From: Levilactobacillus yonginensis | Lineage (GTDB): Bacteria; Bacillota; Bacilli; Lactobacillales; Lactobacillaceae | Direction of reading: 5' to 3' | DNA: 36,106 nucleotides | Assembly: GCF_003946265.1 (NCBI RefSeq) | Contig: NZ_RHNO01000023.1 | Location: forward strand, 1-36,106 | Part shown: positions 7,493 through 32,064 of the stretch, piece by piece | Position numbering within the stretch: the first letter of the stretch is position 1 | Layout of the letters: every line of letters starts with the position of its first letter | Position numbers and translations under genes: made by a program | Notes under the pieces: model-generated | Seen by the model: only the letters and a program-made list of their open reading frames with translations | Database searches by the model: none | Told to the model about the DNA's origin: nothing

Positions 7493-7632
7493 GTCACAAA
7501 ATATGGGCTGGAACGGTGCCGACACAACTTTAAGCCTCGAAGAACACGAGTCTTAAAGCTTGGTCTTGTTCTAACCCCCGGGAAATCACCGGGGATAAGA
7601 ACAACGAGGCGCCTGAGCCCATATTTTGTGAC
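7493..7632 (+). repeat. Structured repeat element 1 (140 bases) in the citF-citX gap
   Basis: A perfect 17-base inverted repeat (GTCACAAAATATGGGCT at 7493-7509 with its complement at 7616-7632) encloses two hairpins. The first pairs CTTTAAG-C-CTCG with CGAG-T-CTTAAAG. The second pairs TTGTTCT..CCCCGG with CCGGGG..AGAACAA. Inside the left arm is GGGCTGGAACG, shared with element 4 and close to element 6. GCCTTACCG lies just outside the left arm, as in element 6 and the remnant at 24732. It contains no gene. Confidence 0.75.
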
Positions 7633-7883
7633 CTCACGGCTGGAATGATGGTAAATTAGCTGGTTGATTGTTATTAACCAAATTGCTTGGTTGATACTTG
7701 TTCAATAGCTGTGCCGTTATCTACAAGGCATTATGACGGAAACCACAATTGCTACTGGTCTAGTGATGATTAGTTTCTAACTATCTCGGTGATTGTCAGT
7801 GCTTTAACGTCCAGAATGCTGATTGAACGATGTTGGTTCTCGCGTTCATGGACGGTTATTCGTTAACAACTAGTGTAACCGCA

Positions 7884-8057
7884 GGGTGGTTGGGATGGGG
7901 GCTGCTGTGTCGGTGGTGTTGCTCGGGGGGGGATTCCCGAGCTTACAGCACGGGACGTGTTTGGAAACGCGCGGGTTTAGCGTGGTTTCAAACCGAGCCG
8001 GAGGACCGCACCTCAGGCCGCAGGCGGTCCCCACAGCAGCCCCCATCCCGGCCACCC
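7884..8057 (-). repeat. Structured repeat element 2 (174 bases) upstream of citX
   Basis: The arms at 7884-7909 and 8032-8057 are complementary over 26 bases with two mismatches (left arm ends GGGGGCTGCTGTG). Inside, GCTCGGG pairs with CCCGAGC around 7920-7942. Read on the minus strand it carries GCTGCTGTGGGGACCGCC, GCGGTCC, GGTTTGAAACC and CCCGTGCTGTA. These blocks match elements 5 and 7 in order. The short reading frames through it are not genes. The rest of the gap (7633-7883 and 8058-8110) shows nothing else I recognise. Confidence 0.75.
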
Positions 8058-8125
8058 GAAGGTGGCATCGACTATTTTAAAATTTTAAAACTAAGAACCA
8101 TAACAAAACCTAAGGAGGAATCAAC

Positions 8126-8668
8126 ATGTCCACGTTGTTTGATAAGGGGCAGGACCTGACCATTGCCGACGTCCTAGCCAACAAAGACCGGCGAGTGGCC
8201 TTTCAGCAGGAAGCCCTCGCTAAGTATCCGGCAGAGACGCTGGTCGCGGTGAAACTCAACATTCCTGGACCCATCAAGAACAATCAGGGAATTCAGGACC
8301 TGTTTGTGGTGGGAATCGACCGGCTAGCGGCGGCCTTTAAGCAGGCTGGTATTACGACAACCGAGTTGAACCAATGGCATACTGCTGCGGGTAACGAGTT
8401 ATTTTGGATGACGCCGATGACGGCCCAAGCCGTCAAACAGGTTGCCGTGGCGTTTGAAGATGAGGACGACCTAGGCCGCATCTTTGACGTGGATGTGTTG
8501 ATGGCGGGGAGTGGCGCCTCCTTGTCACGGACCGAATTAGGTTCCACCGTTCGTCGGTGTTTTATTTGCAACCGCCCCGCTAAAGAGTGTGCTCGGTCAC
8601 GGCGTCATTCCGTGGCGGAGTTGCAGGCTCACATTGATCAGGTCTACCAAGCGACCATTAGAAAGTAG
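8126..8668 (+). CDS. citX: Apo-citrate lyase phosphoribosyl-dephospho-CoA transferase
   Basis: 180 residues. CitX transfers the prosthetic-group precursor onto the serine of CitD, turning apo-lyase into holo-lyase. The C-terminal signature RRCFICNRPAKECARSRRH, with its paired cysteines and basic run, is typical of CitX; an N-terminal stretch KLNIPGPIKNN is also conserved. A strong AAGGAGG ribosome site at 8112-8118 defines the start. citG follows eight bases later, so the two maturation genes form a unit, set apart from citF by about 760 bases with two structured repeats. Confidence 0.95.
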   Translation: MSTLFDKGQDLTIADVLANKDRRVAFQQEALAKYPAETLVAVKLNIPGPIKNNQGIQDLFVVGIDRLAAAFKQAGITTTELNQWHTAAGNELFWMTPMTAQAVKQVAVAFEDEDDLGRIFDVDVLMAGSGASLSRTELGSTVRRCFICNRPAKECARSRRHSVAELQAHIDQVYQATIRK

Positions 8669-8676
8669 GAGAAGTC

Positions 8677-9549
8677 ATGGAAACCACGAACCAGTCAACC
8701 ACCATTGCGAACGATGCCCTGCGCGCCCTGCTCTTTGAAGTGAGCGTGACGCCTAAGCCTGGCTTAGTCGATCCCGCTTCACAGGGACCGCATCCGGACA
8801 TGACGGTCTTCACGTTCATCGACAGCGCACTGAGCCTGCGGACCTACTTTGAGCAGTGTGCGGCGGCTGGAACAGCGTTTACTGGCGCCAATCTACCGGC
8901 ATTATTTGCCCAGTTACGGCCAATTGGAATCACGGCGGAACGCGCCATGTTTCAGGCGACCAACGGGGTAAACACCCATAAGGGCGCCGTCTTTTCCCTT
9001 GGAATTTTAGTAGCGGCCAGCGCATACAGTGAACGGCTAGGCCTGGACCTGGAAACGACCATTAAAGGCATGCTCAAGGGCCTTACGACCAATGATTTTG
9101 CTCACGTGGGTGACAAGCCGGAAGCAGACCTAACGGCCGGAGAACGGCTGTATCTGCGTTATGGCATCACGGGCATTCGGGGGGAAGCCGAACAGGGTTA
9201 TCCGACAGTCTTTGGTCACGCCTTACCAGCACTGCGGCAGAGTTCGGGAACCGCCAATCAACGGTTGCTGGATACTCTGATGGCAATCGTGGCCAATAGT
9301 GTGGATACCAACCTGGTCAAACGCTCCGGTGGCGACGAGCACGTGGTGGCGTGGGCCCACGAACAGGCCAATGCTTACCTGGCCGCTGGCGGCAGTAAGA
9401 CGCCGACGGGGTGGGAAAAATTGCTGGAACTGAACCGCGTTTTTGACGACCGTAACCTGAGCTTAGGTGGGTCGGCCGATCTGCTGATTTTAACCATCTT
9501 TTTGGGCCTCCGCGAAGGCGTCCTGACCAATGATAGTTTTAACTTTTAA
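8677..9549 (+). CDS. citG: Triphosphoribosyl-dephospho-CoA synthase
   Basis: 290 residues, the usual CitG length. It makes 2'-(5''-triphosphoribosyl)-3'-dephospho-CoA from ATP and dephospho-CoA, the precursor used by CitX. Marks seen are the N-terminal VTPKPGLVDPASQGPHPDM, NTHKGAVFSLG, the histidine/aspartate stretch SVDTNLVKRSGGDEH and the C-terminal NLSLGGSADLL. GGAGAAG upstream gives a normal start eight bases after citX. It closes the citrate cluster; a terminator-like hairpin follows at 9650. Confidence 0.95.
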   Translation: METTNQSTTIANDALRALLFEVSVTPKPGLVDPASQGPHPDMTVFTFIDSALSLRTYFEQCAAAGTAFTGANLPALFAQLRPIGITAERAMFQATNGVNTHKGAVFSLGILVAASAYSERLGLDLETTIKGMLKGLTTNDFAHVGDKPEADLTAGERLYLRYGITGIRGEAEQGYPTVFGHALPALRQSSGTANQRLLDTLMAIVANSVDTNLVKRSGGDEHVVAWAHEQANAYLAAGGSKTPTGWEKLLELNRVFDDRNLSLGGSADLLILTIFLGLREGVLTNDSFNF

Positions 9550-15872: not shown

Positions 15873-15992
15873 AGACTTATTTTGGCTAGAGAGTAGGAAT
15901 TAAAATTGATTTTAGGTGTCGTAGCGGCTTGGGGAAGCGCAGCCGATACCAAGGGGAGCACGGTTACGTGGGGAACGTAGCTGTGACAATAA

Positions 15993-16032
15993 ACAGGCAC
16001 CGCAACGAATTTCGTTGCGGTGCCTGTTTTTG
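15993..16032 (+). terminator. Terminator of the GntR-ABC operon
   Basis: ACAGGCACCGCAACGAA pairs with its complement around a three-base TTT centre and ends in TTTTTGTTTT. It is one of the strongest hairpins in the window. Confidence 0.92.
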
Positions 16033-16071
16033 TTTTCCCTTGAATTTAAAATACTGGAGTATCGGTTTGCC

Positions 16072-16223
16072 GTCACGGGCCGGCCGGAGCGGAACCTGCT
16101 GTGGGGACCGGATAAAGCCATAGAGCGGTCTTTATCCTTGATTTTTAGACTAGCCAAGCCCCTCAGGCCTTGGTTAGTCTAAAAATACATCCAGTGGTGA
16201 TTCCACTCCGGCCAACCCGTGAC
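16072..16223 (+). repeat. Structured repeat element 3 (152 bases)
   Basis: The arms at 16072-16094 and 16201-16223 pair GTCACGGG, GGCCGGAG and GGAA blocks with two short mismatches. The first internal hairpin is GGATAAA(G)-loop-(C)TTTATCC, its loop holding GCCATAGAGCGGTC. The second is a long stem (TTTTTAGACTA..CCAAG with CTTGG.TAGTCTAAAAA, about 16138-16187). The block CCTGCTGTGGGGACC is shared with the minus-strand reading of element 2. The 517-base gap 15873-16389 otherwise holds only the terminator at 15993. Confidence 0.78.
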
Positions 16224-16389
16224 TACGGTTGTCGCAGATTTTAACTGGTGTTTATTGGGGTGTTGTGGAAATTAATTCGGATGTGATAGTGGACTATTGA
16301 GCGATAAGCTTTAATTTCACTCGACTGTGACGTCGATACTGCTAACTCGAGCATTAGGTGGTTCACAACGTATTCAGGTTTATTTGCTA

Positions 16390-16740
16390 CTATTCGCGTA
16401 AAACCTGCCGCAGCGGTTTACCCTTGGCTAACTCATCAACTAGTTTATCCAGATAGCGAATGTGTTGCATGGTGGGGTCGGCAATGGTTTCGACACGCAC
16501 GCCACAGATACTGCCCGTGATTTCACTAGCCTGAGAGTTCAGCTGAGGCATCTGGGTGAAAAAGTCTTGAACACTAACGGTTGTCGCAAGTTGTTGTTGA
16601 AGCGTCGCTTGGTCGTAGCCCGTTAGCCAGATGATTACCTGGTCGAGCTCCGCCGTGGACCGCCCTTTTTTGGCTAATTTTTGCTGATAGAGGGGATAGA
16701 CCTTGGCGAAGGGCATGCTGTAGATTCTGGGTTTCGTCAT
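16390..16740 (-). CDS. DUF2200 family protein
   Basis: 116 residues. The compact alpha-helical sequence with RIYSMPFAKVYPLYQQKLAKKGR, VIIWLTGYDQATL, FFTQMPQLN and GVRVETIADPTMQHIRYLDKLVDELAKGK fits the DUF2200 family, which has no assigned reaction. It begins 15 bases after the PH-domain gene, so it is the last gene of a three-gene minus-strand unit. Conservation of the NPTM-like ADPTMQ and IRYLDKLVDE segments suggests a real functional protein, but no catalytic residues can be named. Confidence 0.85.
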   Translation of the reverse strand: MTKPRIYSMPFAKVYPLYQQKLAKKGRSTAELDQVIIWLTGYDQATLQQQLATTVSVQDFFTQMPQLNSQASEITGSICGVRVETIADPTMQHIRYLDKLVDELAKGKPLRQVLRE

Positions 16741-16755
16741 TGGCAGGATTCCTTT

Positions 16756-18649: not shown

Positions 18650-18817
18650 AGATGAAACTCCTCTCCTGAGTTATTTCCAGTGTAGCAACTGACCGTGGCC
18701 CTGACAAGTTGACCCCTAGTGACCGCTTTGCCGACCACCGTAGCTGGGGTCATGGCTGGGTTAGTTGTTAACCTAAAGGTTGAAAATTAGAAAATCGTTA
18801 TCAAACCAAGAATAATA

Positions 18818-19037
18818 AGGCGTTATAGACTTAAAATTAGTCTCACCCAGCCACCTCTGCCCCCCTCCGGTTAAACGGGTTCTTGGAAACTAAGCTAGCT
18901 TACATGCCTGAATGACTGCACTTACGCAATAGTATTGACGAACGGTAAGGCGGCAATTTTTCACTATGTCTGACTAAACACCAATATCCAATCCTGGTTG
19001 TGTCAGACATGGTGGGTGTTTCAGTGCTTTCAACCTT
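18818..19037 (-). repeat. Long composite repeat, copy without insertions
   Basis: Read on the minus strand this matches 31570-32109 in order: GAAACACCCAC, AGGATTG, CAGACATAGTGA, CCGCCTTACCGTTCG, TTGCGTAAGTGC, GTCATTCAGGC, GTAAGCTAG, GTTTAACCGGAGG, and GGTGAGACTAATTTTAAGTC. Where the other copy holds structured elements 6 and 7, this one runs straight on. Near its minus-strand start, CACCATGTCTGAC pairs with GTCAGACATAGTG (one mismatch). It fills most of the gap between the ydbS-like gene and the PyrR-controlled promoter; 18650-18817 shows nothing I recognise. Confidence 0.82.
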
Positions 19038-19285
19038 TAGTTGTTAACCTCAAAGTAAATTGATGAGGGTGGCTAGTGACTTGAGACAGAGGAGGCCGTG
19101 ACTCTGTTTAAAGTTGGGCTAGCTTTCAAGTGAATGAGAAATTTGTTTTTTGACTGAAGTGGATTAATGGCAAGCACGATTAGTTAACCGACTAGTCGTG
19201 ATAAAAATAAAAATTAAAAAGCTGACAGGCCGTGGCACCTGCAGAGTGTAACGGTTAACCTCAAACTAATTTTAATGAATGGTGA

Positions 19286-19314
19286 TTGACGGATACTTTT
19301 TGGCCCCGTATAAT
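19286..19314 (+). promoter_or_regulatory. Promoter of the PyrR-controlled leader
   Basis: TTGACG at 19286-19291 and a perfect TATAAT at 19309-19314 are separated by 17 bases. It drives the attenuator leader that follows. Confidence 0.85.
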
Positions 19315-19334
19315 ACCTAACAACAACCAAATAG

Positions 19335-19921: not shown

Positions 19922-19944
19922 ATAAACGTTGTCGGGTGTATGCC

Positions 19945-20086
19945 GCTAGCTACAGGCCTTGTAGGGCTGGAACGCTGTGCGCACGTTTGGGAGCCAAAAA
20001 GCGGTCTCCCAAGCCGGCGCTGCCTAAACGGCGAAAATCATGCCGTTAAGGCAGTTTCACGGCTGAGCCCACGGCCTTCCGCTAGC
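19945..20086 (+). repeat. Structured repeat element 4 (142 bases)
   Basis: Outer arms pair GCTAGC, AGGCC and GGGCT blocks (19945-19968 with 20065-20086) with small bulges. The first hairpin is TTGGGA-loop-TCCCAA with GCCAAAAAGCGGTC in the loop. The second pairs CTGCCTAAACGGC with GCCGTTAAGGCAG (one mismatch). GGGCTGGAACGC follows the left arm and TTTCACGGC precedes the right arm. The rest of the 376-base gap (20087-20280) shows nothing else. Confidence 0.77.
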
Positions 20087-20297
20087 TAAATAGTGGTAAT
20101 TTATGACCGGTAAATATTTGAAATTCTGGCATATCTTGATGGGCGGACGTTACAACTTGGTGGGTTATTAATTAAATGAAATATGTCCAGTCATTTGACT
20201 TAACTAAGTCAGTGACATCAATTGTGAACCTGACTATCAATGTGTAGCGTGGCAGTTAGAGACGGCTTCGAAGAACTAAAGAGAAAGGTGAGAATCC

Positions 20298-21701: not shown

Positions 21702-21771
21702 GTGTTTAAAACTGTGTAACTCAGCGCGGTTTTTGGTGAAGGCCAAGCTGGTTACCAGCCTTAATAAAAAT

Positions 21772-21812
21772 AAAAACCGGGTTCCCGCACCTTTGGCGGG
21801 GACCCGGTTTTT
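21772..21812 (+). terminator. Terminator of the permease gene
   Basis: AAAAACCGGGTTCCCGC pairs with GCGGGGACCCGGTTTTT (one mismatch near the loop). The T run works rightward; the A run on the other arm could also serve the opposite strand. Confidence 0.92.
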
Positions 21813-21841
21813 AATCATCAACTAGTTAAATTGGTCGCACT

Positions 21842-22017
21842 CCGGAGGCCAGGGATTCCGCCTGCCGTGGGGGACGCTTCAGCCAAAGGACGGGCTTCTC
21901 GCTCGATTTGAAGCCACGAAGGCCCCCTGTCTTCAAAGTCGCCCGTGCTGTAGGCTGGCAAAAAAATCGCCAGCTAACACCACTTTCACGGCTGGCTACA
22001 TCCCTGGTCTCCTCCGG
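21842..22017 (+). repeat. Structured repeat element 5 (176 bases)
   Basis: Left arm CCGGAGGCCAGGGAT (21842-21856) pairs with 22000-22017, leaving a three-base bulge. Internal hairpins include GGCTTC/GAAGCC and GCTGGC/GCCAGC. The conserved order CGTGGGGGACGC, GCCAAAGGACGG, TTTGAAGCC, GTCTTCAAA, CCCGTGCTGTA, TAACACC matches the minus-strand reading of elements 2 and 7. TTTCACGGC near the right arm matches element 4. Outside the element and the terminator, the gap 21702-22215 shows nothing I can name. Confidence 0.78.
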
Positions 22018-22215
22018 TTCTGATTGTGGTGGAACATGATTACCGCTGACAGGGGGTTAGTTGAGCCACCCATGCCGACCAAGCTTGTAGACTAGGAACT
22101 TTCGAGGCTTCAAGTTGTGTCCGTTCCTACCATTGGTTAAGCATAAATCTAGGGAAATACGGACCTGATACCGCGTTATATTGAAAATTAAATAGACTTG
22201 TCATCAGGAGGGGGG

Positions 22216-22911: not shown

Positions 22912-23231
22912 GTCATCGTCTCCGTAACGTGGTCTAAGAGGGTCTTCAATTGGTCAATGGCTTTGGTCTGATGCGTGAGATAGTAGAAGTTCTTCGTCCC
23001 TTCCCGTCGATAGTCGACGAGCTGAACGTCCTTTAAAATTTTGAGATGGTGCGACACGGCTGGCCGTGAGAGCCCTGTGACGCCGATGAGGTCGGTAACC
23101 TGAAGTCCTCGATGGATAACCTTCTGATCCAGTAGTGCAATGATGATCGCTTGGCGCTTCTGATCTCCCAGTGCGACTAGAAAGTCGCTAGAGCGCGTGA
23201 ACTCGTGTTTTAATTTGGTTAAATTCGACAA
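22893..23231 (-). CDS. ArsR family transcriptional regulator
   Basis: 112 residues from TTG 23231, with AGGTGAT six bases upstream. A winged helix is clear: FLVALGDQKRQAIIIALLDQ, VTDLIGVTGLSRPAVSHHLKIL, VQLVDYRREGTKNFYYL. It lacks the CXC metal motif of ArsR/SmtB sensors, so it probably responds to something other than arsenic or zinc, for example oxidants or reactive electrophiles (inference from its neighbours). It shares an operator-rich divergent region with the oxidoreductase gene. Confidence 0.92.
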   Translation of the reverse strand: MSNLTKLKHEFTRSSDFLVALGDQKRQAIIIALLDQKVIHRGLQVTDLIGVTGLSRPAVSHHLKILKDVQLVDYRREGTKNFYYLTHQTKAIDQLKTLLDHVTETMTCNQNL

Positions 23232-23244
23232 TTTATATCACCTA

Positions 23245-23294
23245 ATCGTTTATTATTTTAAACAATTAAAACATGCTATTGTCTCTTTGTCAAC
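23245..23294 (-). promoter_or_regulatory. Promoter and operator of the arsR-DJ-1 unit
   Basis: On the minus strand, TTGACA (23289-23294), 17 bases, then TTTAAT (23266-23271). Directly downstream is ATCGTTTA-N6-TAAACAAT (23245-23266), a dyad with one mismatch per half-site that overlaps the start of transcription. Confidence 0.75.
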
Positions 23295-23329
23295 TTTGAT
23301 GTAGCAATGATCAGTCTCAAACTTATTCG

Positions 23330-23388
23330 TTGACATTTTTAAACCAATTGTGTAATATGATTTTTAATCGTTCAAAAATATAAACGGA
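23330..23388 (+). promoter_or_regulatory. Promoter and operator of the oxidoreductase gene
   Basis: TTGACA at 23330-23335, 17 bases, TAATAT at 23353-23358. Then ATCGTTCA-N6-TAAACGGA (23367-23388), the same layout and nearly the same half-sites as the operator on the other side. Confidence 0.75.
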
Positions 23389-23405
23389 AAAGAGTGCGAA
23401 ACAGC

Positions 23406-24416
23406 GTGTCTAAAACTATGAAAGCCGCCGTAATTACTCACTATCAGCAAGTCATACCCAGCATCAAGACCGTCGCCATCCCAACGCTGCAACCAACCGA
23501 CGTACTAGTCAAAATCAAAGCTGCCAGTATCAACCCCATCGACCTGAAAACGATGGCAGGTGGCCTAAAAATATTACTGTCTTACCAGATGCCACTGATC
23601 ATCGGCAGTGATTTTGCCGGCGAAGTAGTGGCTGTGGGTACCGACGTCACAACCTTTAAGGTTGGCGACGCCGTGTACGGTCGGCCTCGTAAGAACCGGA
23701 TTGGTACCTTCGCGGAATACTTGGCGGTCGATGCTAACGATATCGCCTTAAAGCCCCGCAATCTCAGCTTCAAGGAGGCAGCCGCAATGCCACTAGTCGG
23801 TTTGACGAGTTATCAGGCGCTCCACGATATCCTACAAATTAAACCTGGCCAACACGTACTGATTCAAGCCGGTTCGGGGGGCATTGGCACAGTAGCCATT
23901 CAGTTGGCCAAGCGCCTCGGTGCCATTGTCGCGACCACAACCAGCCCGCGAAATTTCGATCTCGTTCGCAAGTTGGGCGCCGACCGCGTCATCGATTACC
24001 ATACTGAAAACTTTGCGGATGCGCTGACGGATTACGACGCTGTGTTTGATACTCTAGGTGGAAAAAATCTCGAGCAAGCCTTCTCAATCGTCAAACCAGG
24101 CGGCCAGGTGGTTAGCATCTCCGGTTTGCCTAATGCCCGTTTCGCAAAGGAATATGGTCTCTCACGATGGAAACGTGGCCTCTTCAGACTAGCAACGCAT
24201 CGGCTAGATCACTTGGAAAAGCAGACACAGGTAGCCTATCGGTTTCTCTTCATGTGGCCTAGTGGTACTGAGCTAGCAGAATTAACGCGCTTAATAGAAC
24301 AGGAGCAATTGCGTCCAATTATCGATCGCAACTTTAATTTTGATGAACTGAATCGTGCGCTAGCTTACGCTAAGAACGGACACGCTCGCGGAAAAATCAT
24401 CCTTAACATTAGTTAG
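23406..24416 (+). CDS. MDR-family zinc-independent NADP oxidoreductase (quinone reductase-like)
   Basis: 336 residues from GTG 23406; GTG 23394 lies in the purine-rich ribosome site and ATG 23418 is further away but possible. The N-terminal GroES-like part has KAASINPIDLKTMAGG and IIGSDFAGEVVAVG. The Rossmann part has LIQAGSGGIGTVAIQLAKRLGA and DRVIDYHTENF. The zinc-binding cysteines of alcohol dehydrogenases are missing, which points to a quinone or enone reductase. It is divergent from the arsR-DJ-1 pair and shares operators with it. A clear terminator follows. Confidence 0.9.
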   Translation: MSKTMKAAVITHYQQVIPSIKTVAIPTLQPTDVLVKIKAASINPIDLKTMAGGLKILLSYQMPLIIGSDFAGEVVAVGTDVTTFKVGDAVYGRPRKNRIGTFAEYLAVDANDIALKPRNLSFKEAAAMPLVGLTSYQALHDILQIKPGQHVLIQAGSGGIGTVAIQLAKRLGAIVATTTSPRNFDLVRKLGADRVIDYHTENFADALTDYDAVFDTLGGKNLEQAFSIVKPGGQVVSISGLPNARFAKEYGLSRWKRGLFRLATHRLDHLEKQTQVAYRFLFMWPSGTELAELTRLIEQEQLRPIIDRNFNFDELNRALAYAKNGHARGKIILNIS

Positions 24417-24611
24417 TCAAAAAGGTCGGGGATCTACTAACTGATTAATTTTTGGGTATACGAAATAGACTAGTCACTTAAAGTGACTGGTAAACTTGGG
24501 GAGTGGTCAGTTATTATGATTTTCACTTTTTTAGCGAGGGTGTAATTGGATGGCTGGTCAAATCTAGCCAAGTGATGCATCGTTCGTAGAAGGCGTTGTA
24601 TTGCTCTCATG

Positions 24612-24650
24612 ACAATTCTCTTAGTGGGTGGCTTTGAGAATTGTTTTTTT
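24612..24650 (+). terminator. Terminator of the oxidoreductase gene
   Basis: ACAATTCTC pairs with GAGAATTGT and is followed by a run of T. It lies about 200 bases after the stop codon. Confidence 0.82.
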
Positions 24651-24731
24651 ATTCCTCGATAATAGTCACTATTCTAATTTTCTAAACACACTTTTTATTA
24701 GTTCATAGACTAAGAAAAGACTTGGTGGAAA

Positions 24732-24780
24732 CTATGAGACCGTCATTTTCCAGCCCATAGCTGGCGGCCGGTAAGGCGGA
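24732..24780 (-). repeat. Remnant of the structured repeat family
   Basis: On the minus strand it reads CCGCCTTACCG, then TATGGGCTGGAA, then ACGGTCTC. These are the left flank, the left-arm core and the loop core of elements 1, 4 and 6, brought together by loss of the sequence between. No matching right arm is present. Confidence 0.5.
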
Positions 24781-24825
24781 TGAACACACAAGTTAATGTT
24801 AGTGTTATAACAACCTTTAAGCCGC

Positions 24826-24867
24826 AAAAAAAGAGCTAGGTATGAGTGATTTCATACCTAGCTCTTT
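24826..24867 (-). terminator. Terminator of the exopolysaccharide operon
   Basis: AAAGAGCTAGGTATG pairs perfectly with its complement. On the minus strand the hairpin is followed by seven T, directly after the deacetylase gene. Confidence 0.93.
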
Positions 24868-24882
24868 AACGTATCATCAGGC

Positions 24883-25776
24883 TTACTTACTGGTTTTCAA
24901 CCATTTGATGATGGACGGCCAACTTTCGTGGTTAACGATCAACCGTGGCGTTTCATTCATATTGGTTTTGCTGGTGACGATACCAGAATCCAGCGTAGCC
25001 ACCCAGTTCAATTGTTGATGAGCCAGGAAGTTATTGATCTGCGTCGTTCCACCACCATAGGGGTAGGCGAACGCGTTCGCTGTCACACCAGTGTGGGCTT
25101 TGAGTTCCTTGGCAGATAGGTGGAAGTCCCGTTCAAACTTTCCCAGGTAGTGGGGTTGCATGAAGACGGGTTCCATTTTAGCCGTCAAATGATGCAGGTT
25201 ATGCGTATGCAGGCCCAGCGTCATCTTGTCGCCCATCAGCTTCTTGGCCGCCTTGATCTGGGACCAAGTGGCCATTTGGCTACCTTCACGGTATTGGCCG
25301 GTGTTCCCGGTGATCACGAAGGCCGTGAAAGGAAAGTTGTATTTCCTCATCACGGGTACGGCGTTGTCCAGGACACTGCGGTCAATATCATCAAAGGAAA
25401 GCACGGCGTACTTGCCCTTGATGGGGTGATGGCTCGCAACCATTTGGGTCATTTGTTCGGATGAAATGATTTTGACGTGATTGTCATGTAATTCCTTCAT
25501 CTGTGCCGCAAACTCGCTAGCAGGAACGTTGAATTCGTGTAGTTGAGAGTTATTTGAAAGCTTTTGCGCGATCTGGGTGGGCACGGTTCCCTTAACAACC
25601 CGGTGGTAACAGAAGACCATGATACCGTTCTGGTCCTTTTGGAAGCGGGCGGGTAGGGCATAGCTTTCTTCCGTGCTGTGCAACTTAACGGCTTGGCGTT
25701 GGAAGGTCCAACCAAGGCCAAAGACCAGGGCTATCAGGAGGCCAATCAAGAGGCCTTTTCGTGAGCGGGGCGTCAT
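24883..25776 (-). CDS. Polysaccharide deacetylase (IcaB/PgaB-type), extracellular
   Basis: 297 residues. An N-terminal helix (GLLIGLLIALVFGLGWTF) anchors or exports the protein. Carbohydrate esterase 4 motifs are present: VFCYHRV, LSFDDIDRS with the paired aspartates, LHTHNLHH with the metal histidines, and FAYPYGGG. IcaB and the N-terminal half of PgaB partly remove acetyl groups from poly-N-acetylglucosamine, which keeps the polymer on the surface. The four-base overlap with the small membrane protein gene places it last in a three-gene operon behind a PNAG-type synthase. Confidence 0.9.
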   Translation of the reverse strand: MTPRSRKGLLIGLLIALVFGLGWTFQRQAVKLHSTEESYALPARFQKDQNGIMVFCYHRVVKGTVPTQIAQKLSNNSQLHEFNVPASEFAAQMKELHDNHVKIISSEQMTQMVASHHPIKGKYAVLSFDDIDRSVLDNAVPVMRKYNFPFTAFVITGNTGQYREGSQMATWSQIKAAKKLMGDKMTLGLHTHNLHHLTAKMEPVFMQPHYLGKFERDFHLSAKELKAHTGVTANAFAYPYGGGTTQINNFLAHQQLNWVATLDSGIVTSKTNMNETPRLIVNHESWPSIIKWLKTSK

Positions 25777-26069
25777 GCGTGACCCTCCTTTTTAATGTGA
25801 ATCCAGCGGTAAATGCAGTAGATAGGGACAATGATCAGCAGACACCCAATCAAGATGAGAAAACCGTTGTTTGCATGTGGTGTCAGGTTCAGCAGCAAAT
25901 AAATGCTGACCAGGCTATCACTGTAGATTCCCATTTTAAAGGCAATATTCATGCACACGACCAACGCAACGAAAGCCCACAAGGCAACTAAGATAATAAT
26001 GCGGGCAAGGTGGCTGGCGTGTCCCGTTTGGTGACGAATAACGGGATCAAAGTTCGATTGTTTTTTCAT
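25773..26069 (-). CDS. Small membrane protein, PgaD/IcaD-like
   Basis: 98 residues with two membrane helices (IIILVALWAFVALVVCMNIAF; NGFLILIGCLLIIVPIYCIYRW) joined by a short outside loop. Size, topology and position between synthase and deacetylase match PgaD and IcaD, which bind the glycosyltransferase and are needed for full polymerisation. Sequence identity in this group is low, so the assignment leans on context. It starts two bases after the synthase stop and overlaps the deacetylase start. Confidence 0.75.
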   Translation of the reverse strand: MKKQSNFDPVIRHQTGHASHLARIIILVALWAFVALVVCMNIAFKMGIYSDSLVSIYLLLNLTPHANNGFLILIGCLLIIVPIYCIYRWIHIKKEGHA

Positions 26070-26071
26070 AA

Positions 26072-27292
26072 TTAGATACCTCGATCTGGACTACGCCAGG
26101 TTCCTCGTCGCTTGGGATCAATGATGTACGAGGAAATGGCGGCCAAACAGCTGATCAAGTTGATCATCCAGTAGTACAACACGTAGATGGGGACCAGCAG
26201 CAGCTCCGGTCCGGCTAATTTGGCGGTGACCTGTGAGGCCATAAACCCAAGGGTGAATTGCACACCACTTAGAATCAGCAGGATCAACAGCAGGTTTCCG
26301 TCCAATGACAGGCCATGCAGGAAAATCAATTTGATGGTGTAGGTCAAGACGCTGAGCGCCGTCATTAGGGCCCAAATATTACTGATGACCGTTTCAAGTA
26401 ACAGGAAGCGTTGGCCCCACGGGTTACGGTAGAAACCGCGCCAGTTAGTGAAGAGGACTTCCAGCCCGCCTCGTGACCAACGTTGGCGTTGCTTGATCAA
26501 GCCGCGGAAACGCTCGGGAACCAGAATCCAACAAACCGCGCGGGGTTCGTAGGCCACGCGCCAGTTGTGGCGGTAAAGTCGCCAGGTGATGTCGATATCT
26601 TCGGTCATCACGGCAGGATTCCACCCACCAACGTCCTCTAGGGCTGCCCGACGAAAGGCAACGATGACACCGGATACCGTGGTAATGCTCCCGGTTAGGT
26701 AGGCTTGCGCCTTTTTGATGATATCGATCACGCCAACGTACTCCAGTAATTGGAGACGGCCTAATAGACTCGACCGGTTGCGGACGACTGGTTTTCCAGT
26801 GACAGCCCCGTAATCTGGTTGCATGGTCAAGGTCGTGATGAGTTGGGTCACAGCGTCGGGAGCCAACAAGGAGTCAGCATCGATACCGACTAAGTAGTCA
26901 CCCTTAGCTGCTTTTAAGCCCTGGTTCAACGCGTTGGCCTTTCCCTGGTTAACGGGGAGGCCGACAACGGTGATGGGTAATTCGTCGGCCCACTGCGCTT
27001 TTAAGTCGTGCATGATGGCCAACGTATCGTCAGAACTACAGTCGTCGATCAAGACGACCTCATACTTTTCATATTCTAGTTCTGCCAAGGATCGGACGGC
27101 TGATCGGAGTGTATCCGATTCGTTATGCGCTGGAACCAATATTGAGACGAATGGTTCAGTCGTCAGATTGAGTGACGGGCGTACTTGATGACGCCTTAAA
27201 AGGCCTGAGAATAGGCACCCAGTAATCCAAATAATGGAAACGAAAATTGGGTAGCCCACCACAAAGCCGGTGTTCAGATTGTTAAACCACAT
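26072..27292 (-). CDS. Poly-N-acetylglucosamine synthase-like glycosyltransferase (PgaC/IcaA family)
   Basis: 406 residues, a processive family 2 glycosyltransferase in the membrane. One N-terminal helix, then the catalytic domain (about 45-280) with VPAHNESDTL, DDCSSDDT, the GIDADS metal motif, the TEDIDITWRL base and QRQRWSRGG for holding the chain. Three to four C-terminal helices follow. It builds beta-1,6-GlcNAc or a related polymer from UDP-sugar. Start has GGGGGAG upstream. Order synthase, D-like, deacetylase is that of icaADB without icaC. Confidence 0.9.
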   Translation of the reverse strand: MWFNNLNTGFVVGYPIFVSIIWITGCLFSGLLRRHQVRPSLNLTTEPFVSILVPAHNESDTLRSAVRSLAELEYEKYEVVLIDDCSSDDTLAIMHDLKAQWADELPITVVGLPVNQGKANALNQGLKAAKGDYLVGIDADSLLAPDAVTQLITTLTMQPDYGAVTGKPVVRNRSSLLGRLQLLEYVGVIDIIKKAQAYLTGSITTVSGVIVAFRRAALEDVGGWNPAVMTEDIDITWRLYRHNWRVAYEPRAVCWILVPERFRGLIKQRQRWSRGGLEVLFTNWRGFYRNPWGQRFLLLETVISNIWALMTALSVLTYTIKLIFLHGLSLDGNLLLILLILSGVQFTLGFMASQVTAKLAGPELLLVPIYVLYYWMINLISCLAAISSYIIDPKRRGTWRSPDRGI

Positions 27293-27521
27293 AACTTATT
27301 ATTCTCCCCCAGAATGTGTCGTTCATGCTATTAAATAGACGGCCTTGAGAATACCACAACCAACGTATTCAGGGAATAGCAGATAGCAAATGTGGGGGAA
27401 ACTTAAGGAGTTATTAAGAAAGTTATTCCTAATTTTGATTCGCTGAGCGGGGCTGACGGCTGTTTCGACTGGACCGTGGTAGAATGAGGGAGAAAGCAAG
27501 TATGGGAGGGTGATCGAATTG

Positions 27522-27761
27522 ATGCAACAGATGCCAATTTTACCGTTAGTCGATCGGTTAACTGAAGGGCAGAGTGTGACGCTGTCGACCAGTGAAGGCG
27601 CCGATGTTCGGATCTCACCAGAAGTTCAGGACGGCCAACTGACCGGAAACTTTACCAGTAGCGTTTTACCGGGAATTCGGTACGACGATCCCCGAATCAT
27701 TTTAAAAGAAACCTTAGCGGAATTCGATGAACGTGGCGTGACCATTACTAGCATCGACTGA
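27522..27761 (+). CDS. Small protein of unknown function
   Basis: 79 residues from ATG 27522 (or 80 from TTG 27519, nearer to GGGAGGG at 27504-27510). It is acidic and soluble, with a beta-rich look (LTEGQSVTLSTSEGADVRISPEV, then GQLTGNFTSSVLPGIRYDDPR as adjoining parts) and a helical segment RIILKETLAEFDERGV. No signal peptide or membrane helix is seen. I do not recognise the family. A strong terminator follows, so it is a single-gene unit. Clean ribosome site and terminator make it a credible gene. Confidence 0.72.
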   Translation: MQQMPILPLVDRLTEGQSVTLSTSEGADVRISPEVQDGQLTGNFTSSVLPGIRYDDPRIILKETLAEFDERGVTITSID

Positions 27762-27783
27762 GAGAGAACGTGCGGGTAACGGG

Positions 27784-27825
27784 CCCCTGAGCTGGTGGTA
27801 GTTTTAACCACGGCTCAGGGGTTTT
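27784..27825 (+). terminator. Terminator of the small protein gene
   Basis: CCCCTGAGC pairs with GCTCAGGGG, with additional GGTGGT/ACCAC pairing inside, followed by TTTT. Confidence 0.88.
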
Positions 27826-27858
27826 CGCTATCTAACTCGCGTGGGGGAGAGGATTGCA

Positions 27859-29361
27859 GTGAAAATCGATTTTGCCATGTTAACGGCCAAGGATATTCTA
27901 AAACTGCGGTTGTTAACGTTTATCAACGACCATGGACAACGCTTTAGTTTGACTGCCTTTGCGACGGCGGCCGATGTGAGTTATTCACGCGCCTATCACG
28001 TGTTGCTTAATTTGCGGACTGACTTATTAGTCTTAGATGGCACGACGAGTTTGAGTAAGGATTACCTAGAGACGACCGTTTCAATGGATACGTACCGCCA
28101 CTGGCTTTATTTACAAAGTATCCCGTATCAGGCTTTATTGGCGACGATTACATCTGAGTCGCAGGAAACGGCGGATTTCTGTGCTCGTCACGATATCAGT
28201 TTATCGACTTTTAATCGCCGGATGCGGCCGATGAAGATGCAGCTGGCACAATACAACTTACAGCTGACGGCCAGTCCCTTACAGATTGTGGGGGATGAAG
28301 CTCTGATTCAGCTCTTCTATTTTATGTTGTTTACCACCACCTTAACCCCTGTGGTCGGTTTGCCTCGGCTCGCCAAAAAGTTGATGCCACTTCACGATGA
28401 GTTCGTGCAGACTTATCAGTCTTCGCGCCTGTATCAAGATTCTGCTAGCCTGGCTCAGCGACGAGACCTCATGATTACGGTAGCACTGTTGCGGTTGGAG
28501 CGGGGCCACCGGTTCGAGGCGCTCCGATTCCCATTGGCTCACTTGACGGATCTGCGCACGTTGGCCGAGCAAATGCAGGCCCAGTTGGGGGATTCACCGC
28601 AGGAAGTCCTGACGGAACTAGCGACGCTGGATTACTTACTGACGAGTTCGCCGTATTTTGTGCGGGCCTTACAGCCACAAGCCATGGCTCGGTTGTACCG
28701 GGGACTCAAACAACATGGCGGCTTTTATCAGTTAGCCCCGGGGGTTACCGAACTTGAAGACTATGCCAGCGGGGCGGATTGGTTTGCCAACTGGCTCTTT
28801 TCACTCTGCCAGTTCATGCTCCTCTTTCGGGTCGATCCGCTATTGCGTCCAGAAATTACAGCGCTTTACCGACCAACACCAGCCTCTATGGCGGCGGCCT
28901 TGGCCTTGGCTGACAGTATGGGCCGGTTGTACCCCGGACAAGTGGGGCCAGCCGACTTGCGACTCGTTCAACGTTACCTGAGTAAATATACAAATGGGTT
29001 GACGTTGACGGCGGCTAAGGTTGAAATCTTAGTGACCTATGACATGATTGGCGTGACCACGGATATTTTTAACCGTTTGTTGAGTGGTATCGTGCACTTA
29101 ACCTTACTCACCAATCAAACGGTGATCGATCAGACTCACCGGGATAATTATTTAGTGGTGTACGGCATCGACCCGTTGGCAGCAGAATTTGCCCAACGTC
29201 ACCAGTTGGAGGCCTTTCACTGGGTCAAGGAGCTGGAGTACGGCGAAAATTTGGATCGGTTGATTCGAACGTTGCGCCACCACGAGTTGTCACTATTTGC
29301 GCTGGACTTCAATAACCGGAGTAGTCAGATTTCACATCGAGATGGTGTGAACGGTGGCTAA
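27859..29361 (+). CDS. Mga-like helix-turn-helix transcriptional regulator
   Basis: 500 residues from GTG 27859, seven bases after GGGGGAGAGG. The N-terminus has two winged-helix regions of the Mga type: LTAKDILKLRLLTFINDHG with FATAADVSYSRAYHVLLNL, then DISLSTFNRRMRPMK. The long middle part is helical and leucine-rich like PRD-type regulatory domains. The last 100 residues (YLVVYGIDPLAAEFAQRHQL) may be an EIIB-like fold. Members regulate surface and sugar genes in Streptococcus and Enterococcus. No phosphotransferase gene is next to it, so the target is unknown. Confidence 0.83.
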   Translation: MKIDFAMLTAKDILKLRLLTFINDHGQRFSLTAFATAADVSYSRAYHVLLNLRTDLLVLDGTTSLSKDYLETTVSMDTYRHWLYLQSIPYQALLATITSESQETADFCARHDISLSTFNRRMRPMKMQLAQYNLQLTASPLQIVGDEALIQLFYFMLFTTTLTPVVGLPRLAKKLMPLHDEFVQTYQSSRLYQDSASLAQRRDLMITVALLRLERGHRFEALRFPLAHLTDLRTLAEQMQAQLGDSPQEVLTELATLDYLLTSSPYFVRALQPQAMARLYRGLKQHGGFYQLAPGVTELEDYASGADWFANWLFSLCQFMLLFRVDPLLRPEITALYRPTPASMAAALALADSMGRLYPGQVGPADLRLVQRYLSKYTNGLTLTAAKVEILVTYDMIGVTTDIFNRLLSGIVHLTLLTNQTVIDQTHRDNYLVVYGIDPLAAEFAQRHQLEAFHWVKELEYGENLDRLIRTLRHHELSLFALDFNNRSSQISHRDGVNGG

Positions 29362-29390
29362 GTTGGTTAAACACTTTTAAATGAATAACG

Positions 29391-29427
29391 AGGGAGACTA
29401 TGACGTCGGTCAGGGCCTCCCTTTATT
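29391..29427 (+). terminator. Possible terminator after the Mga-like gene
   Basis: AGGGAG pairs with CTCCCT, followed by TTTATT; only a moderate stem. The rest of the gap to 29723 shows just a weak promoter-like TTGACG (29663) and TAAAAT (29688), with a 19-base spacer. Confidence 0.4.
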
Positions 29428-29723
29428 GATTGCTTGAATTTTGTAACGCCGACTATCCCGAAACGGACTGGTATCAAGGGAAATGACCGATAATGGTGAA
29501 TAATTACTGTAAAAATCTACTATATATAAGGGCTATCAACTAATCGCTAAAATTAGATGATGATAAACAACGTTAGATGGTTGCTGTTGCGGTGACATTC
29601 AGGGGGGGCTTCAGGGAGGCGAACACTGTAGGGGACTATTTACCCACTGGTTATAGTTAATCTTGACGCGGTTAGTCTAATTTGCGGTAAAATAAGAGGC
29701 AATTAATGACGGGAGGTGGCGTG

Positions 29724-31085
29724 ATGACGCCAGCAGCTTTTAGTACCGGAAGGGTTCAAGTGAATAAGACGATTGCGGAACTGCGTCAGTTGGGCAAAGG
29801 CGCCCGGGAACAGGTTTCGTTTGAACAGCTGGGCGCTTACCACCCCGTTGAGCGGGACAGTAACCTTTTGATGGACCGTATTCGGCAGTTATTGTTACCA
29901 GAGCTTTTGCCGGAACGGACCCAGCGCATGGGTGCGTCGACCTTTTCCTTTTTCCGGGGAACGGCGGAATTAATGGAGGCCGACCTGCGTAAACAGTTGA
30001 ACACGCCCATCACGACTTTTATTTGTGGGGATGCCCACATCGGGAACTTTGGGTTTTATGCTTCCCCGGAGCGCCGGCTATTATTTGATTTGAACGACTT
30101 CGATGAAGCAGGGATCAATCCCTGGGAGTGGGATTTGAAACGGTTATTGGTCAGTGTGCTCTTAGCAGGTGAAGCGAACGGGTTCAAGGAGAAGAAACTG
30201 CGGCAATTATTACCACTGGTTGCTGAGAGTTATCGTAAGAGTAACAAGCAGATGTTTGAACAGACGACCCTGGCCCGTTTCTATCCACTAAACGATGTGG
30301 ACCGGTTGGTGAAAGCTAGTGCGTTGGATAATGACAATTCCCAGCTGTTAACCACGATTATCAATCGGGCTAATAAGCGGGACTCGGAACAAGTCGTTCG
30401 TAAATTTACAACGCTGGATGTCCGTGGTAACTTATGCTTTCGTGAAAATGCACCGCGTACCATGCACGTGGATGATGACGTGACCAGTCACATTGCAGCT
30501 TACTTCGCAGCATACCGGCAGTCTTTACGGCCGGACGTGAACCTGTTGCTTTCGCAGTATCACATTACGGATATTGTTCGGCATAGCGTTGGGGTCGGTA
30601 GTTTCGGGTCCCGCTGCTATCTGGTTCTGCTGACCAGTATTGACGGTTCCCACTTGGTACTACAGGTCAAAGAGGCGTTGCCAACTCGACAGGTCGGTAG
30701 TCAGGCAGAGACTGAAATTACGGTGGCCCTTGAGCAAACGGAAGGGCAACGAATCGTGGATTGTCAGAAAATTCTGCAGTCGGCTTCGGATCCCTTCTTG
30801 GGTTACTTTGCCGGGCAACAGCAGAGCTTTTACGTGCGGCAATTTCGGGATATGAAGGAATCAATCGATCTGACGCAGCTGGATTGGGATCAGTTCCAGA
30901 GTTATGCGAATACTTGTGCTTGGACGCTGGCAATTGCCCATTGTCAAAGCCCGACAGCTGCGGAGATTCGTGGGTACATCGGGAGTGGCAAACACTTTGA
31001 TGAGAGCTTGGCCGCGTTTGCCTGGTCTTATGCTGAACAAGTTAAGACAGACTATGCTGCCTTTAGGGAGTACAGATTGGCTTAA
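29724..31085 (+). CDS. DUF2252 family protein
   Basis: 453 residues from ATG 29724, five bases after GGGAGGTG. The sequence has the kinase-like DUF2252 marks: FSFFRGTAELMEADL, FICGDAHIGNFGFY (the HXXN catalytic-loop-like motif) and LLFDLNDFDEAGINPWEWDLKRL (the acidic metal-binding-like block, in two parts LLFDLNDFDEA and PWEWDLKRL). The GVGSFGSRCYLVLL strand-loop is also typical. The family's reaction is not established. The MarR gene begins 73 bases downstream, so the two may be co-transcribed. Confidence 0.87.
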   Translation: MTPAAFSTGRVQVNKTIAELRQLGKGAREQVSFEQLGAYHPVERDSNLLMDRIRQLLLPELLPERTQRMGASTFSFFRGTAELMEADLRKQLNTPITTFICGDAHIGNFGFYASPERRLLFDLNDFDEAGINPWEWDLKRLLVSVLLAGEANGFKEKKLRQLLPLVAESYRKSNKQMFEQTTLARFYPLNDVDRLVKASALDNDNSQLLTTIINRANKRDSEQVVRKFTTLDVRGNLCFRENAPRTMHVDDDVTSHIAAYFAAYRQSLRPDVNLLLSQYHITDIVRHSVGVGSFGSRCYLVLLTSIDGSHLVLQVKEALPTRQVGSQAETEITVALEQTEGQRIVDCQKILQSASDPFLGYFAGQQQSFYVRQFRDMKESIDLTQLDWDQFQSYANTCAWTLAIAHCQSPTAAEIRGYIGSGKHFDESLAAFAWSYAEQVKTDYAAFREYRLA

Positions 31086-31158
31086 GCAGGTCGCCACAGA
31101 AATGTGGTCGTGGTACAATGAAAGCGGATACAAAATTGATTTGGAGGGAGTGGGGCGC

Positions 31159-31527
31159 ATGGTGGAGCAGGAGCAATTACAACGCCTGACCCAAATTTAT
31201 ACGGTCGTGACACAGTGTTACAATCAACCCCTGGCAGATATGGCAGTCAACTTGCCACAATGTCAATTGTTGGGATACGTTGGCAGTGAACAACTTTCAG
31301 TGGCTCAGGTCGCCCATAAATTAGGCTTTTCGGCGACTCGGACGTCCAATTTGGTGGTCGATTTATGTAAGCGTGGCTATCTTAAGCAGCATGTTGCCTC
31401 AAATGATCGTCGGCGACGGTACTTGGCCTTAACGGTGCAAGGCCAACAGCAGTTGGACGTGATTCAGCAGCAATTACCAGATATTTTACATAAGACGCTT
31501 CAGGAATTATACGGGGCGGCTAATTGA
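31159..31527 (+). CDS. MarR family regulator
   Basis: 122 residues from ATG 31159 with GGAGGGAG upstream; GTG 31150 is too close to it, and the open frame further left lies inside the DUF2252 gene. The winged helix covers about 45-105: LSVAQVAHKLGFSATRTSNLVVD, then LCKRGYLKQHVASNDRRRRYLALT (adjoining), with the basic wing DRRRRY typical of MarR. The N-terminal dimer helices are shorter than usual. The ligand is unknown. Structured repeats fill the downstream gap. Confidence 0.85.
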   Translation: MVEQEQLQRLTQIYTVVTQCYNQPLADMAVNLPQCQLLGYVGSEQLSVAQVAHKLGFSATRTSNLVVDLCKRGYLKQHVASNDRRRRYLALTVQGQQQLDVIQQQLPDILHKTLQELYGAAN

Positions 31528-31655
31528 CCGTGAGCTGTTTATCACGGTTCAAGAAAAGGTAAGAAACGAAAGGCTGAAGCGTTGAAACACCCACTATGCT
31601 TGATACAACAAGGATTGCGTATCAGACATAGTGAGAAGCTACCGCCTTACCGTTC

Positions 31656-31800
31656 GCCAAATTTGGACTGGAACGCGGCGGGCAGGACGGGACAAGCCAA
31701 AGAGCGGTCTTACACCTCGCTTGAAGCCGCAAAGCACGTCTTCAAGTCGCCATTTTCAAGAAAGTCACTTGAAAATCCCACGGCTTAGTCCAAATTTGGC
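31656..31800 (+). repeat. Structured repeat element 6 (145 bases)
   Basis: Perfect 14-base arms (GCCAAATTTGGACT with its complement at 31787-31800) enclose CTTGAAG/CTTCAAG and ATTTTCAAG/CTTGAAAAT. CTGGAACGC follows the left arm, GCCAAAGAGCGGTC is the core, and CCCACGGC precedes the right arm. It is inserted in the long composite repeat. Confidence 0.8.
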
Positions 31801-31899
31801 TCACTCTCGGCTAGCTAGTGGCGCGTCAATAAAATTGCGTAAGTGCCTGTCATTCAGGCGTGTAAGCTAGTTTAGTTTCTAAGAACCTGTTTAACCGGA

Positions 31900-32064
31900 G
31901 GTGGTCAGAGGTGGAGCCAGCGGTGTCGACGGTGTTAGCCGATTTTCGGCTTACAGCGTGGGACGTGTTTGAAGACTGGTGGTTTTCCCAGGCTTCAAAC
32001 CGAGCCGAAGGACCGCTTTTCAGGCCGGAGGCGTTCCCCACAGCAGGCGGAATCTCTGACCGCC
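31900..32064 (-). repeat. Structured repeat element 7 (165 bases)
   Basis: Arms GGTGGTCAGAG (31900-31910) and CTCTGACCGCC (32054-32064) pair with one G-U. Inside, AGCCGA pairs with TCGGCT at the place where element 2 has GCTCGGG/CCCGAGC. Shared blocks on the plus strand, GGGACGTGTTTG, TTCAAACCGAGCCG, AGGACCGC and TCCCCACAGCAG, match element 2 closely. Confidence 0.8.

What the first reader, a model, noticed from the sequence alone, without database searches (positions are those of the whole stretch)
7493..32064. A family of structured intergenic repeats, seven copies and a remnant, with changing but always paired outer arms
Copies at 7493, 7884, 16072, 19945, 21842, 31656 and 31900 (two on the minus strand) share a core: a left-arm block ending GG-N-CTGGAACG or CTG-YYGTGGGGA, then GCC-N4to7-GCGGTC, and CACGGC before the right arm. 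The closing stems (14-26 bases) differ completely between copies yet pair in each one. Seven in 36 kb is dense. They carry no gene. They could be a mobile non-coding element that makes a cruciform, or a repeated folded RNA. I know no named family with this pattern.
Basis: partly seen in the sequence, partly recalled or inferred. Interest (0 to 1): 0.8.

Follow-up and report, generated by a model that had tools for sequence, protein, structure and literature searches.

The report
Dispersed structured RNA-like repeat in lactobacilli
Between the genes of many lactobacilli sit many copies of one intricately folded, non-coding element, usually as back-to-back pairs near gene ends; evolution keeps its fold on one strand, as for a working RNA, and the RNA-family library searched has no entry for it.

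Summary
All seven copies are one ~187-nt branched motif ('M'), matched by one covariance model in a consistent frame. The genome is a Levilactobacillus with at least 150 copies. M is in 80 of 301 Lactobacillaceae genomes, 10 of 40 genera, and matches no Rfam family. In 139 copies, 49 of 58 pairs vary on both sides and 95.4% of cells pair. Wobbles are strand-specific: 447 G.U against 78 A.C cells. Between sister species M differs at 5.8% of aligned sites, against 15.5% in the spacer between M's and 19.5% at four-fold sites, so M is selected in place. Neighbouring M's are divergent in 80 of 86 cases, and 9 of 9 in other genera. M lies in 24 of 57 convergent but 4 of 56 divergent gene gaps. One subfamily is a MITE with inverted ends and 7-9 bp target duplications. 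A selected single-strand fold is strongly supported. Its function is inferred: best guess, an outward-facing RNA element that ends or trims transcripts before they run antisense into a neighbour. Rho loss does not explain its distribution.

The parts
7481..7641 (-). M copy (A type), left member of a divergent pair
   Evidence: R1 69.0 bits, E 5.7e-15; A-type alignment
7877..8066 (+). M copy (B type), right member of the same divergent pair
   Evidence: R1 178.8 bits; in alignment A1
16069..16224 (-). single M copy between convergent genes
   Evidence: R1 64.8 bits; not alignable with L. tongjiangensis
18773..19040 (-). MITE unit without its two M bodies; inverted ends, TTGTTAAC on both sides
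   Evidence: (I1-I4)
19945..20083 (-). single M copy 24 bp after the stop of the 146-aa gene; L. tongjiangensis has a different M at this place
   Evidence: R1 43.1 bits, E 1.6e-8
21834..22019 (-). M copy (B type) between convergent genes; absent from L. tongjiangensis
   Evidence: R1 153.5 bits
22077..22123 (+). A-type fragment
   Evidence: all-against-all blast depth 22; strand from reading the sequence
24748..24800 (+). A-type fragment
   Evidence: all-against-all blast depth 18; strand from reading the sequence
31557..32127 (+). MITE-type unit of about 0.6 kb that carries the divergent M pair 31641-31812 / 31893-32073; its own outer ends are degenerate
31641..31812 (-). M copy (A type) inside the unit
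   Evidence: R1 52.5 bits
31893..32073 (+). M copy (B type) inside the unit
   Evidence: R1 177.8 bits; in A1

Best explanation
Shown: M is one ~187-nt motif. A long closing helix holds hairpin H1 and a short GGG/CCC helix, which encloses hairpins H2 and H3. It is dispersed through intergenic DNA, normally as two M's back to back (5' ends inward, 3' ends towards the flanking genes), and its fold is selected at its place in the genome. Shown: wobble pairs are kept on the M strand only, so the selected molecule is single-stranded; RNA is the simplest reading. Shown: one subfamily travels as a non-autonomous DNA transposon (MITE) with ~14-bp inverted ends and 7-9 bp target duplications. Inferred: M is a cis-acting element of transcripts that leave the unit outward and would run antisense into the tail of the neighbouring gene; once folded it ends, pauses or marks for trimming the transcript just before that gene. 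A divergent pair serves both directions, which would explain why units favour convergent gaps and are rare in promoter gaps. It is not a classical intrinsic terminator (no U-tract). I give about 0.9 to a selected single-strand fold and about 0.35 to the barrier or 3'-end role; the confidence below is for the whole statement.
For: One model finds all seven copies. Covariation: 95.4% of 7985 cells paired against 78.1% shuffled and 32-46% slid; 49 of 58 pairs changed on both sides; MAFFT alignments not made with the model agree. Strand: 447 G.U against 78 A.C, 39 columns against 7; the separately aligned A set shows the same bias (24 against 5). Constraint in place: M 318/5460, spacer 286/1850, four-fold 2642/13576; paired 145/2991 against unpaired 171/1805 in 26 orthologue pairs, with 56 WC-GU against 18 WC-AC single steps and 13 double changes that keep pairing. 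Layout: 80 of 86 neighbours divergent, 0 convergent, 9 of 9 in five other genera. Placement: convergent 24/57, co-directional 29/189, divergent 4/56 gaps in the own genome; 17/43, 35/184, 3/49 in L. tongjiangensis; the 3' side faces a gene tail in 120 of 168 cases, 38 of them within 40 bp. Mobility.
Against: No transcript data. No promoter consensus at the M 5' ends and no U-tract at the 3' ends. Some spacers already hold what looks like an intrinsic terminator, so M would see only read-through. M does not track Rho: 17 of 80 M-positive and 47 of 221 M-negative family genomes have it. Copy number varies widely within the genus (9 in L. brevis ATCC 14869, 124 in CD0817), so M is dispensable. 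Turnover is real: 4 of 33 own M's with synteny anchors were not alignable in L. tongjiangensis. At one locus of the close pair L168-L184 the spacer (3/100) differs no more than the M's (7/185, 15/195). One search counts only alignable blocks.
Confidence: 0.42

Rival explanations
1. Purely selfish mobile element: the fold is needed only for transposition (folded ssDNA ends, or an RNA intermediate), and the host gains nothing.
For: Inverted ends and target duplications; large copy-number differences within the genus; different M's in the same gene gap in different species; one-strand ssDNA would also give the wobble bias.
Against: Constraint at orthologous places between species with 19.5% four-fold divergence, and pairing kept by double changes there; M's also stand without the MITE ends.
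Confidence: 0.2
2. M belongs to the 3' UTR of the gene it abuts, as a stabiliser or terminator of that gene's own mRNA.
For: M 3' ends often lie close to a stop codon (38 of 120 tail-on cases within 40 bp); in some pairs the terminator lies beyond M; some bcr repeats of B. cereus are transcribed in UTRs (PMC3446304 passages).
Against: That mRNA carries the strand on which wobbles become A.C mismatches; no U-tract.
Confidence: 0.13
3. M is itself an expressed, perhaps trans-acting or SINE-like RNA that spreads through an RNA copy.
For: Single-strand fold, very high copy number, presence in 10 genera, interior exchange between copies.
Against: No promoter consensus; divergent pairs are not expected of independent retro-insertions; the subfamily tested moves as a DNA MITE.
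Confidence: 0.08
4. DNA-level structure: a cruciform or double-strand protein site, for example for supercoiling or chromosome organisation.
For: Long perfect arms; the antisense strand also folds stably.
Against: G.U against A.C asymmetry.
Confidence: 0.07
5. No selection: template switching inside imperfect palindromes keeps the arms matched.
For: Could make arms that differ between copies yet pair (mechanism recalled, not tested).
Against: Does not predict fewer substitutions in M than in spacer, nor wobbles on one strand.
Confidence: 0.03

Closest known systems
bcr1-bcr18 repeats of the Bacillus cereus group
   Same: Dispersed intergenic repeats of similar length (Bcr1 147-167 bp), foldable, MITE-like, about half of the copies of all 18 families transcribed in UTRs or intergenic RNA
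   Different: Other lineage; M has a branched fold with strand-specific wobbles, divergent pairing and constraint at orthologous sites; no sequence comparison was made
Foldable intergenic repeat families (ERIC, RUP, BOX, Efa-1, REP)
   Same: High-copy, intergenic, inverted arms (PMC2267715 passages; PMC3733652 listing)
   Different: ERIC is a single long stem-loop and Efa-1 a pair of adjacent stem-loops; REPs are 20-40 bp; M is ~187 nt with nested junctions
MITEs (non-autonomous DNA transposons)
   Same: The unit of 31557-32127 has relatives with inverted ends and 7-9 bp target duplications and no gene
   Different: MITEs are not expected to keep a branched fold by selection in place; many M's stand without such ends
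Bidirectional intrinsic terminators
   Same: Preference for gaps between gene tails; action in both directions by a symmetric unit (inferred)
   Different: No U-tract at M; some units hold a separate terminator-like hairpin in the spacer

Membership tests
Any Rfam 15 family | score at or above a family's gathering cut-off | tested here: not met
   gathering scan of the whole window: only a T-box at 34025-34222; permissive scans of 7400-8150 and 15900-32200 list nothing over an M except mir-1258 at E 3.1
MITE (the 31.6-32.1 kb unit class) | terminal inverted repeats | tested here: met
   20 units in the fetched own-genome loci with CTAAAGGTTGAAAG-type ends within 2 mismatches at both ends; the window's intact copy has degenerate ends
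MITE (the 31.6-32.1 kb unit class) | target-site duplication | tested here: met
   summed match score 118 against mean 31 and maximum 51 in 200 shuffles; 10 of 20 units score 6 or more
MITE (the 31.6-32.1 kb unit class) | a related autonomous transposon that mobilises it | not tested
   end sequences were listed but not checked for a transposase
MITE (M by itself) | terminal inverted repeats at the M ends | tested here: not met
   in most copies the last bases are a direct CCGGAGG repeat at both ends
Intrinsic terminator | GC-rich hairpin followed by a run of T | tested here: not met
   no T-run in the composition downstream of 235 M's
bcr1 | TTTAT at both ends (recalled) | tested here: not met
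   no such preference in the end profiles
bcr1 | sequence and structure homology | not tested
   R1 was not run on Bacillus cereus
Functional RNA | covariation with strand-specific wobbles | tested here: met
Functional RNA | transcription of the M strand | not testable with these tools
   no RNA data at hand

The most novel reading that the evidence does not exclude
M is a new, Lactobacillaceae-wide class of cis-acting RNA element that brackets gene ends at hundreds of places per genome. It stops or trims transcription that would run antisense into the neighbouring gene, without Rho and without a U-tract, and it was spread by transposition and then taken into service.
Probability: 0.3. Interest if true: 0.88.

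Novelty: new variant of a known kind. Interest (0 to 1): 0.74.

Why it matters
Dispersed bacterial repeats are mostly read as transposon debris or simple hairpins. Here a complex fold, about one copy per 5 kb in the own-genome stretches scanned, is constrained at orthologous places nearly as much as coding sites other than four-fold ones (0.058 against 0.042), in genera important in food fermentation, and I found no name for it. It offers a large natural set of paralogues and orthologues for testing whether a mobile repeat became a genome-wide RNA signal at gene ends, and its covariance model could be used for annotation.

Tried and rejected
Two separate families A and B: rejected; A reverse-complemented aligns with B and one model finds both. 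Clean empty site at 18790-19040: rejected; it is a unit that lost its hairpin bodies and keeps an A-type end. Autonomous transcription units: no promoter or terminator consensus at the M ends. Plasmid or phage element: no match for one B copy and one whole unit on plasmids and for one B copy on phages; few queries, so weak. Compensation for a missing Rho: Rho was not found in this genome nor in the 15 genomes listed as its genus, but across 301 family genomes M and Rho are unlinked (17 of 80 against 47 of 221). A first count of pair changes by two-sequence alifold (last line) only keeps pairs allowed in both sequences, so I replaced it with the model structure. Group IIC-intron-like insertion beside terminators: considered because 5' ends face the spacer; not claimed, as many spacers show no terminator (the automatic scan there found 10 strand-hits in the spacers of 80 pairs, no more than in the outer flanks). 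Integron attC likeness: considered from memory, not tested. Singleton 5'-side against 3'-side distances: not used as evidence, because the lost partner would give the same pattern.

Literature: searches aimed at such repeats or RNAs in lactobacilli, 53 at bcr1, 89 at Rho; no listed title or abstract describes this element. The library lacks most subscription journals. Papers seen: passages of PMC3446304, PMC2267715 and PMC5643018; listings only for all others.

Rows dropped. L039 (contig end). A1: 39 of the 78 rows (35 of 46 non-MITE, 4 of 32 MITE). The 238 M's come; antisense duplicates, repeated window rows and two truncated rows (L018:1-170, L051:940-1041) were left out. L081 and L091 are the same place, and L091 and L109 are own-genome loci labelled 'rel', so one of the 86 neighbour pairs is counted twice; the 'synt' loci are partly orthologous. 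One search leaves the 'synt' loci out. Searches use 87 own and 98 L. tongjiangensis M's; partial and antisense rows were left out. Of the 87, 29 lay inside aligned blocks, 4 between anchors and 54 had no anchor in the fetched stretches. One search uses 26 of those 29; three A types fell below the A3 cut-off.
Full report
What is there. Blasting two of these regions against the own genome gave 56 and 57 matching places, the query itself included. An alignment of 39 copies became covariance model R1 (187 positions, 58 pairs). R1 finds all seven copies at E 1.6e-8 or better in one frame: 7877-8066 and 31893-32073 on plus; 7481-7641, 16069-16224, 19945-20083, 21834-22019 and 31641-31812 on minus. 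In R1 orientation M runs AGCCGGAGG - left arm - GCTGTG - hairpin H1 - GGG - hairpin H2 - hairpin H3 - CCCCACAGC - right arm - CCGGAGGYGGC. Rfam 15 has no match over an M (apart from a chance-level hit at E 3.1).

How many and where. In the own genome all 150 scored candidates matched; 1060 first-look candidates existed, so 150 is a lower bound. In 430,692 bases of own sequence there are 87 M's, about one per 5 kb. These are the window plus 20 stretches from contigs known to have hits; if typical, that is about 540 per genome, an extrapolation. The genus is Levilactobacillus: a window protein is 98% identical to that of L. tongjiangensis. All 17 other genomes of the genus have matches, and 0 of 12 from other families. 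In the family, 80 of 301 genomes in 10 of 40 genera match (8 candidates scored per genome, stricter filters). In an order-wide draw 2 of 148 genomes match, the own one and one of its family. Named genomes (at most 131 scored each): L. brevis ATCC 14869 9, 'L. brevis' CD0817 124, L. enshiensis 101, L. tangyuanensis 72, L. lindianensis 91, Companilactobacillus huachuanensis 131, C. nantensis 131, C. kimchiensis 54, Lactiplantibacillus modestisalitolerans 32, Secundilactobacillus angelensis 7, S. hailunensis 4. The other nine of the twenty gave none: three Lentilactobacillus, two Lacticaseibacillus, and one each of Periweissella, Latilactobacillus, Lactobacillus selangorensis and Bombilactobacillus.

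The fold. In the MAFFT alignment of 39 copies, 43 of 58 predicted pairs have at least one copy in which both sides changed and pairing was kept. In 139 copies from two species aligned to R1, 95.4% of cells pair (shuffled 78.1%; slid partners 32-46%), 49 of 58 pairs change on both sides (shuffled mean 36.7) and the covariation score is 0.512 against 0.182; 0 of 500 shuffles reach any observed value. That alignment leans towards the structure and the shuffles do not remove relatedness, but searches do not use it and agree.

One strand is selected. Of 7985 pair cells, 447 are G.U and 78 A.C in M orientation; 39 columns have more G.U, 7 more A.C. Without the two columns dominated by G.U it is still 295 to 78. 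The A-type set, aligned separately and read on the other strand, has 24 A.C against 5 G.T outside two nearly invariant G.T columns, which is the same bias on the M strand. A cruciform or double-strand site should not show this. RNA and one-strand ssDNA cannot be told apart by sequence.

Selected in place. Between the own genome and L. tongjiangensis, in aligned syntenic blocks, M differs at 318 of 5460 sites (5.8%), the spacer between M's at 286 of 1850 (15.5%), four-fold sites at 2642 of 13576 (19.5%), other coding sites at 4.2% and other intergenic sites at 8.4%. Only alignable sequence is counted. Of 33 own M's with anchors, 29 aligned and 4 did not; at 21834 the relative lacks M and keeps one CCGCAG on the M strand, and at 19945 it has a different M. 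For 26 orthologue pairs on the model structure, unpaired positions change at 171/1805 and paired ones at 145/2991; single steps between Watson-Crick and wobble number 56, between Watson-Crick and A.C 18, and 13 pairs changed on both sides and still pair. In a second set (L. parabrevis L148, an uncultured MAG L168, L. fuyuanensis L184), L148-L168 M's differ by 3-9% where spacers differ by about 29% and four-fold sites by 35%; but for the closer L168-L184 at locus 1 the spacer (3/100) differs no more than the M's (7/185, 15/195), so the contrast is not uniform. One M there (locus 2 B of L184) has the ends of its orthologue but another interior, which looks like conversion between copies.

Arrangement. 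Of 86 neighbouring M's less than 700 bp apart, 80 are divergent with 5' ends inward, 6 tandem, none convergent (one pair is counted twice and some loci are orthologous). In five other genera 9 of 9 such neighbours are divergent. By R1 score the 80 pairs are 52 A with B, 24 B with B and 4 A with A. In contiguous own sequence M's lie in 24 of 57 convergent, 29 of 189 co-directional and 4 of 56 divergent gaps (Fisher, convergent against divergent, p 1.9e-5); L. tongjiangensis gives 17 of 43, 35 of 184 and 3 of 49 (p 1.1e-4; convergent against co-directional is not significant there, p 0.08). None of 87 or 98 M's overlaps a gene predicted by my own simple finder. The 3' side of outward M's meets a gene tail in 120 of 168 cases, 38 of them within 40 bp, against 6 of 48 for gene heads.

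Mobility. The 31.6-32.1 kb pair belongs to a unit of about 0.6 kb; 39 other scored places match it at 81-92%, besides smaller pieces. Twenty units or remnants have recognisable inverted ends CTAAAGGTTGAAAG, and their flanks show 7-9 bp target duplications (score 118 against at most 51 in 200 shuffles). 18773-19040 is such a unit without its M bodies, with TTGTTAAC on both sides. Other M's stand without these ends. In the gap between the 146-aa gene (a nucleoside deoxyribosyltransferase by my reading, not tested) and the 467-aa gene, 9 of 30 Levilactobacillus loci carry an M; 13 of the other 21 have a gap of only 27-36 bp. The window, L121, L123, L125, L127 and the trio L148/L168/L184 have an M 12-32 bp after the stop, all in the same orientation, with 51-77% identity outside the trio. 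This points to repeated arrival or replacement at one place.

What it probably does. A selfish element alone does not explain constraint in place. A double-strand DNA site does not explain the strand bias. A 3' UTR element of the abutting gene would be selected on the other strand. What fits is an RNA element of transcripts that leave the unit and are about to enter the neighbour antisense, present once for each direction. It has no U-tract, so it would have to act through pausing, processing or a protein. Against it: no RNA data, terminator-like hairpins in several spacers, and no link with Rho (17 of 80 M-positive and 47 of 221 M-negative family genomes have it). I hold the selected single-strand fold at about 0.9 and the barrier role at about 0.35.

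Known relatives. The closest kind is the dispersed foldable intergenic repeats: bcr1-bcr18 (passages of PMC3446304) and the families of PMC2267715 (passages). M differs in its branched fold, strand-specific conservation, divergent pairing and constraint at orthologous places. No listed title or abstract of my searches describes it; the library lacks most subscription journals.

Noticed in passing
34025-34222 (+): T-box leader (112 bits) upstream of the ORF at 34280-35539.
   Followed up: no
19333-19436 (+): PyrR-binding-site-like RNA, 52 bits, just under the gathering score of 54, upstream of the 146-aa gene at 19481.
   Followed up: no
L184:2744-2935 against L148:2745-2929 and L168:2744-2928: Orthologous M with the same ends but a different interior: looks like non-allelic conversion between M copies.
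   Followed up: partly
L124 (L. brevis ATCC 14869) and L185 ('L. brevis' CD0817): Two genomes labelled L. brevis, both held in a collection with one genome per species, differ strongly in M content: 9 against 124 matches.
   Followed up: no
own genome and family: No Rho RNA-binding domain in this genome or in the 15 genomes listed as its genus; 64 of 301 family genomes have one.
   Followed up: partly
spacers of L036, L059, L026, L096, L101, L118, L025, L034: By eye, symmetric A-run / hairpin / T-run sequences (bidirectional terminator-like) lie between the two M's of a pair.
   Followed up: partly
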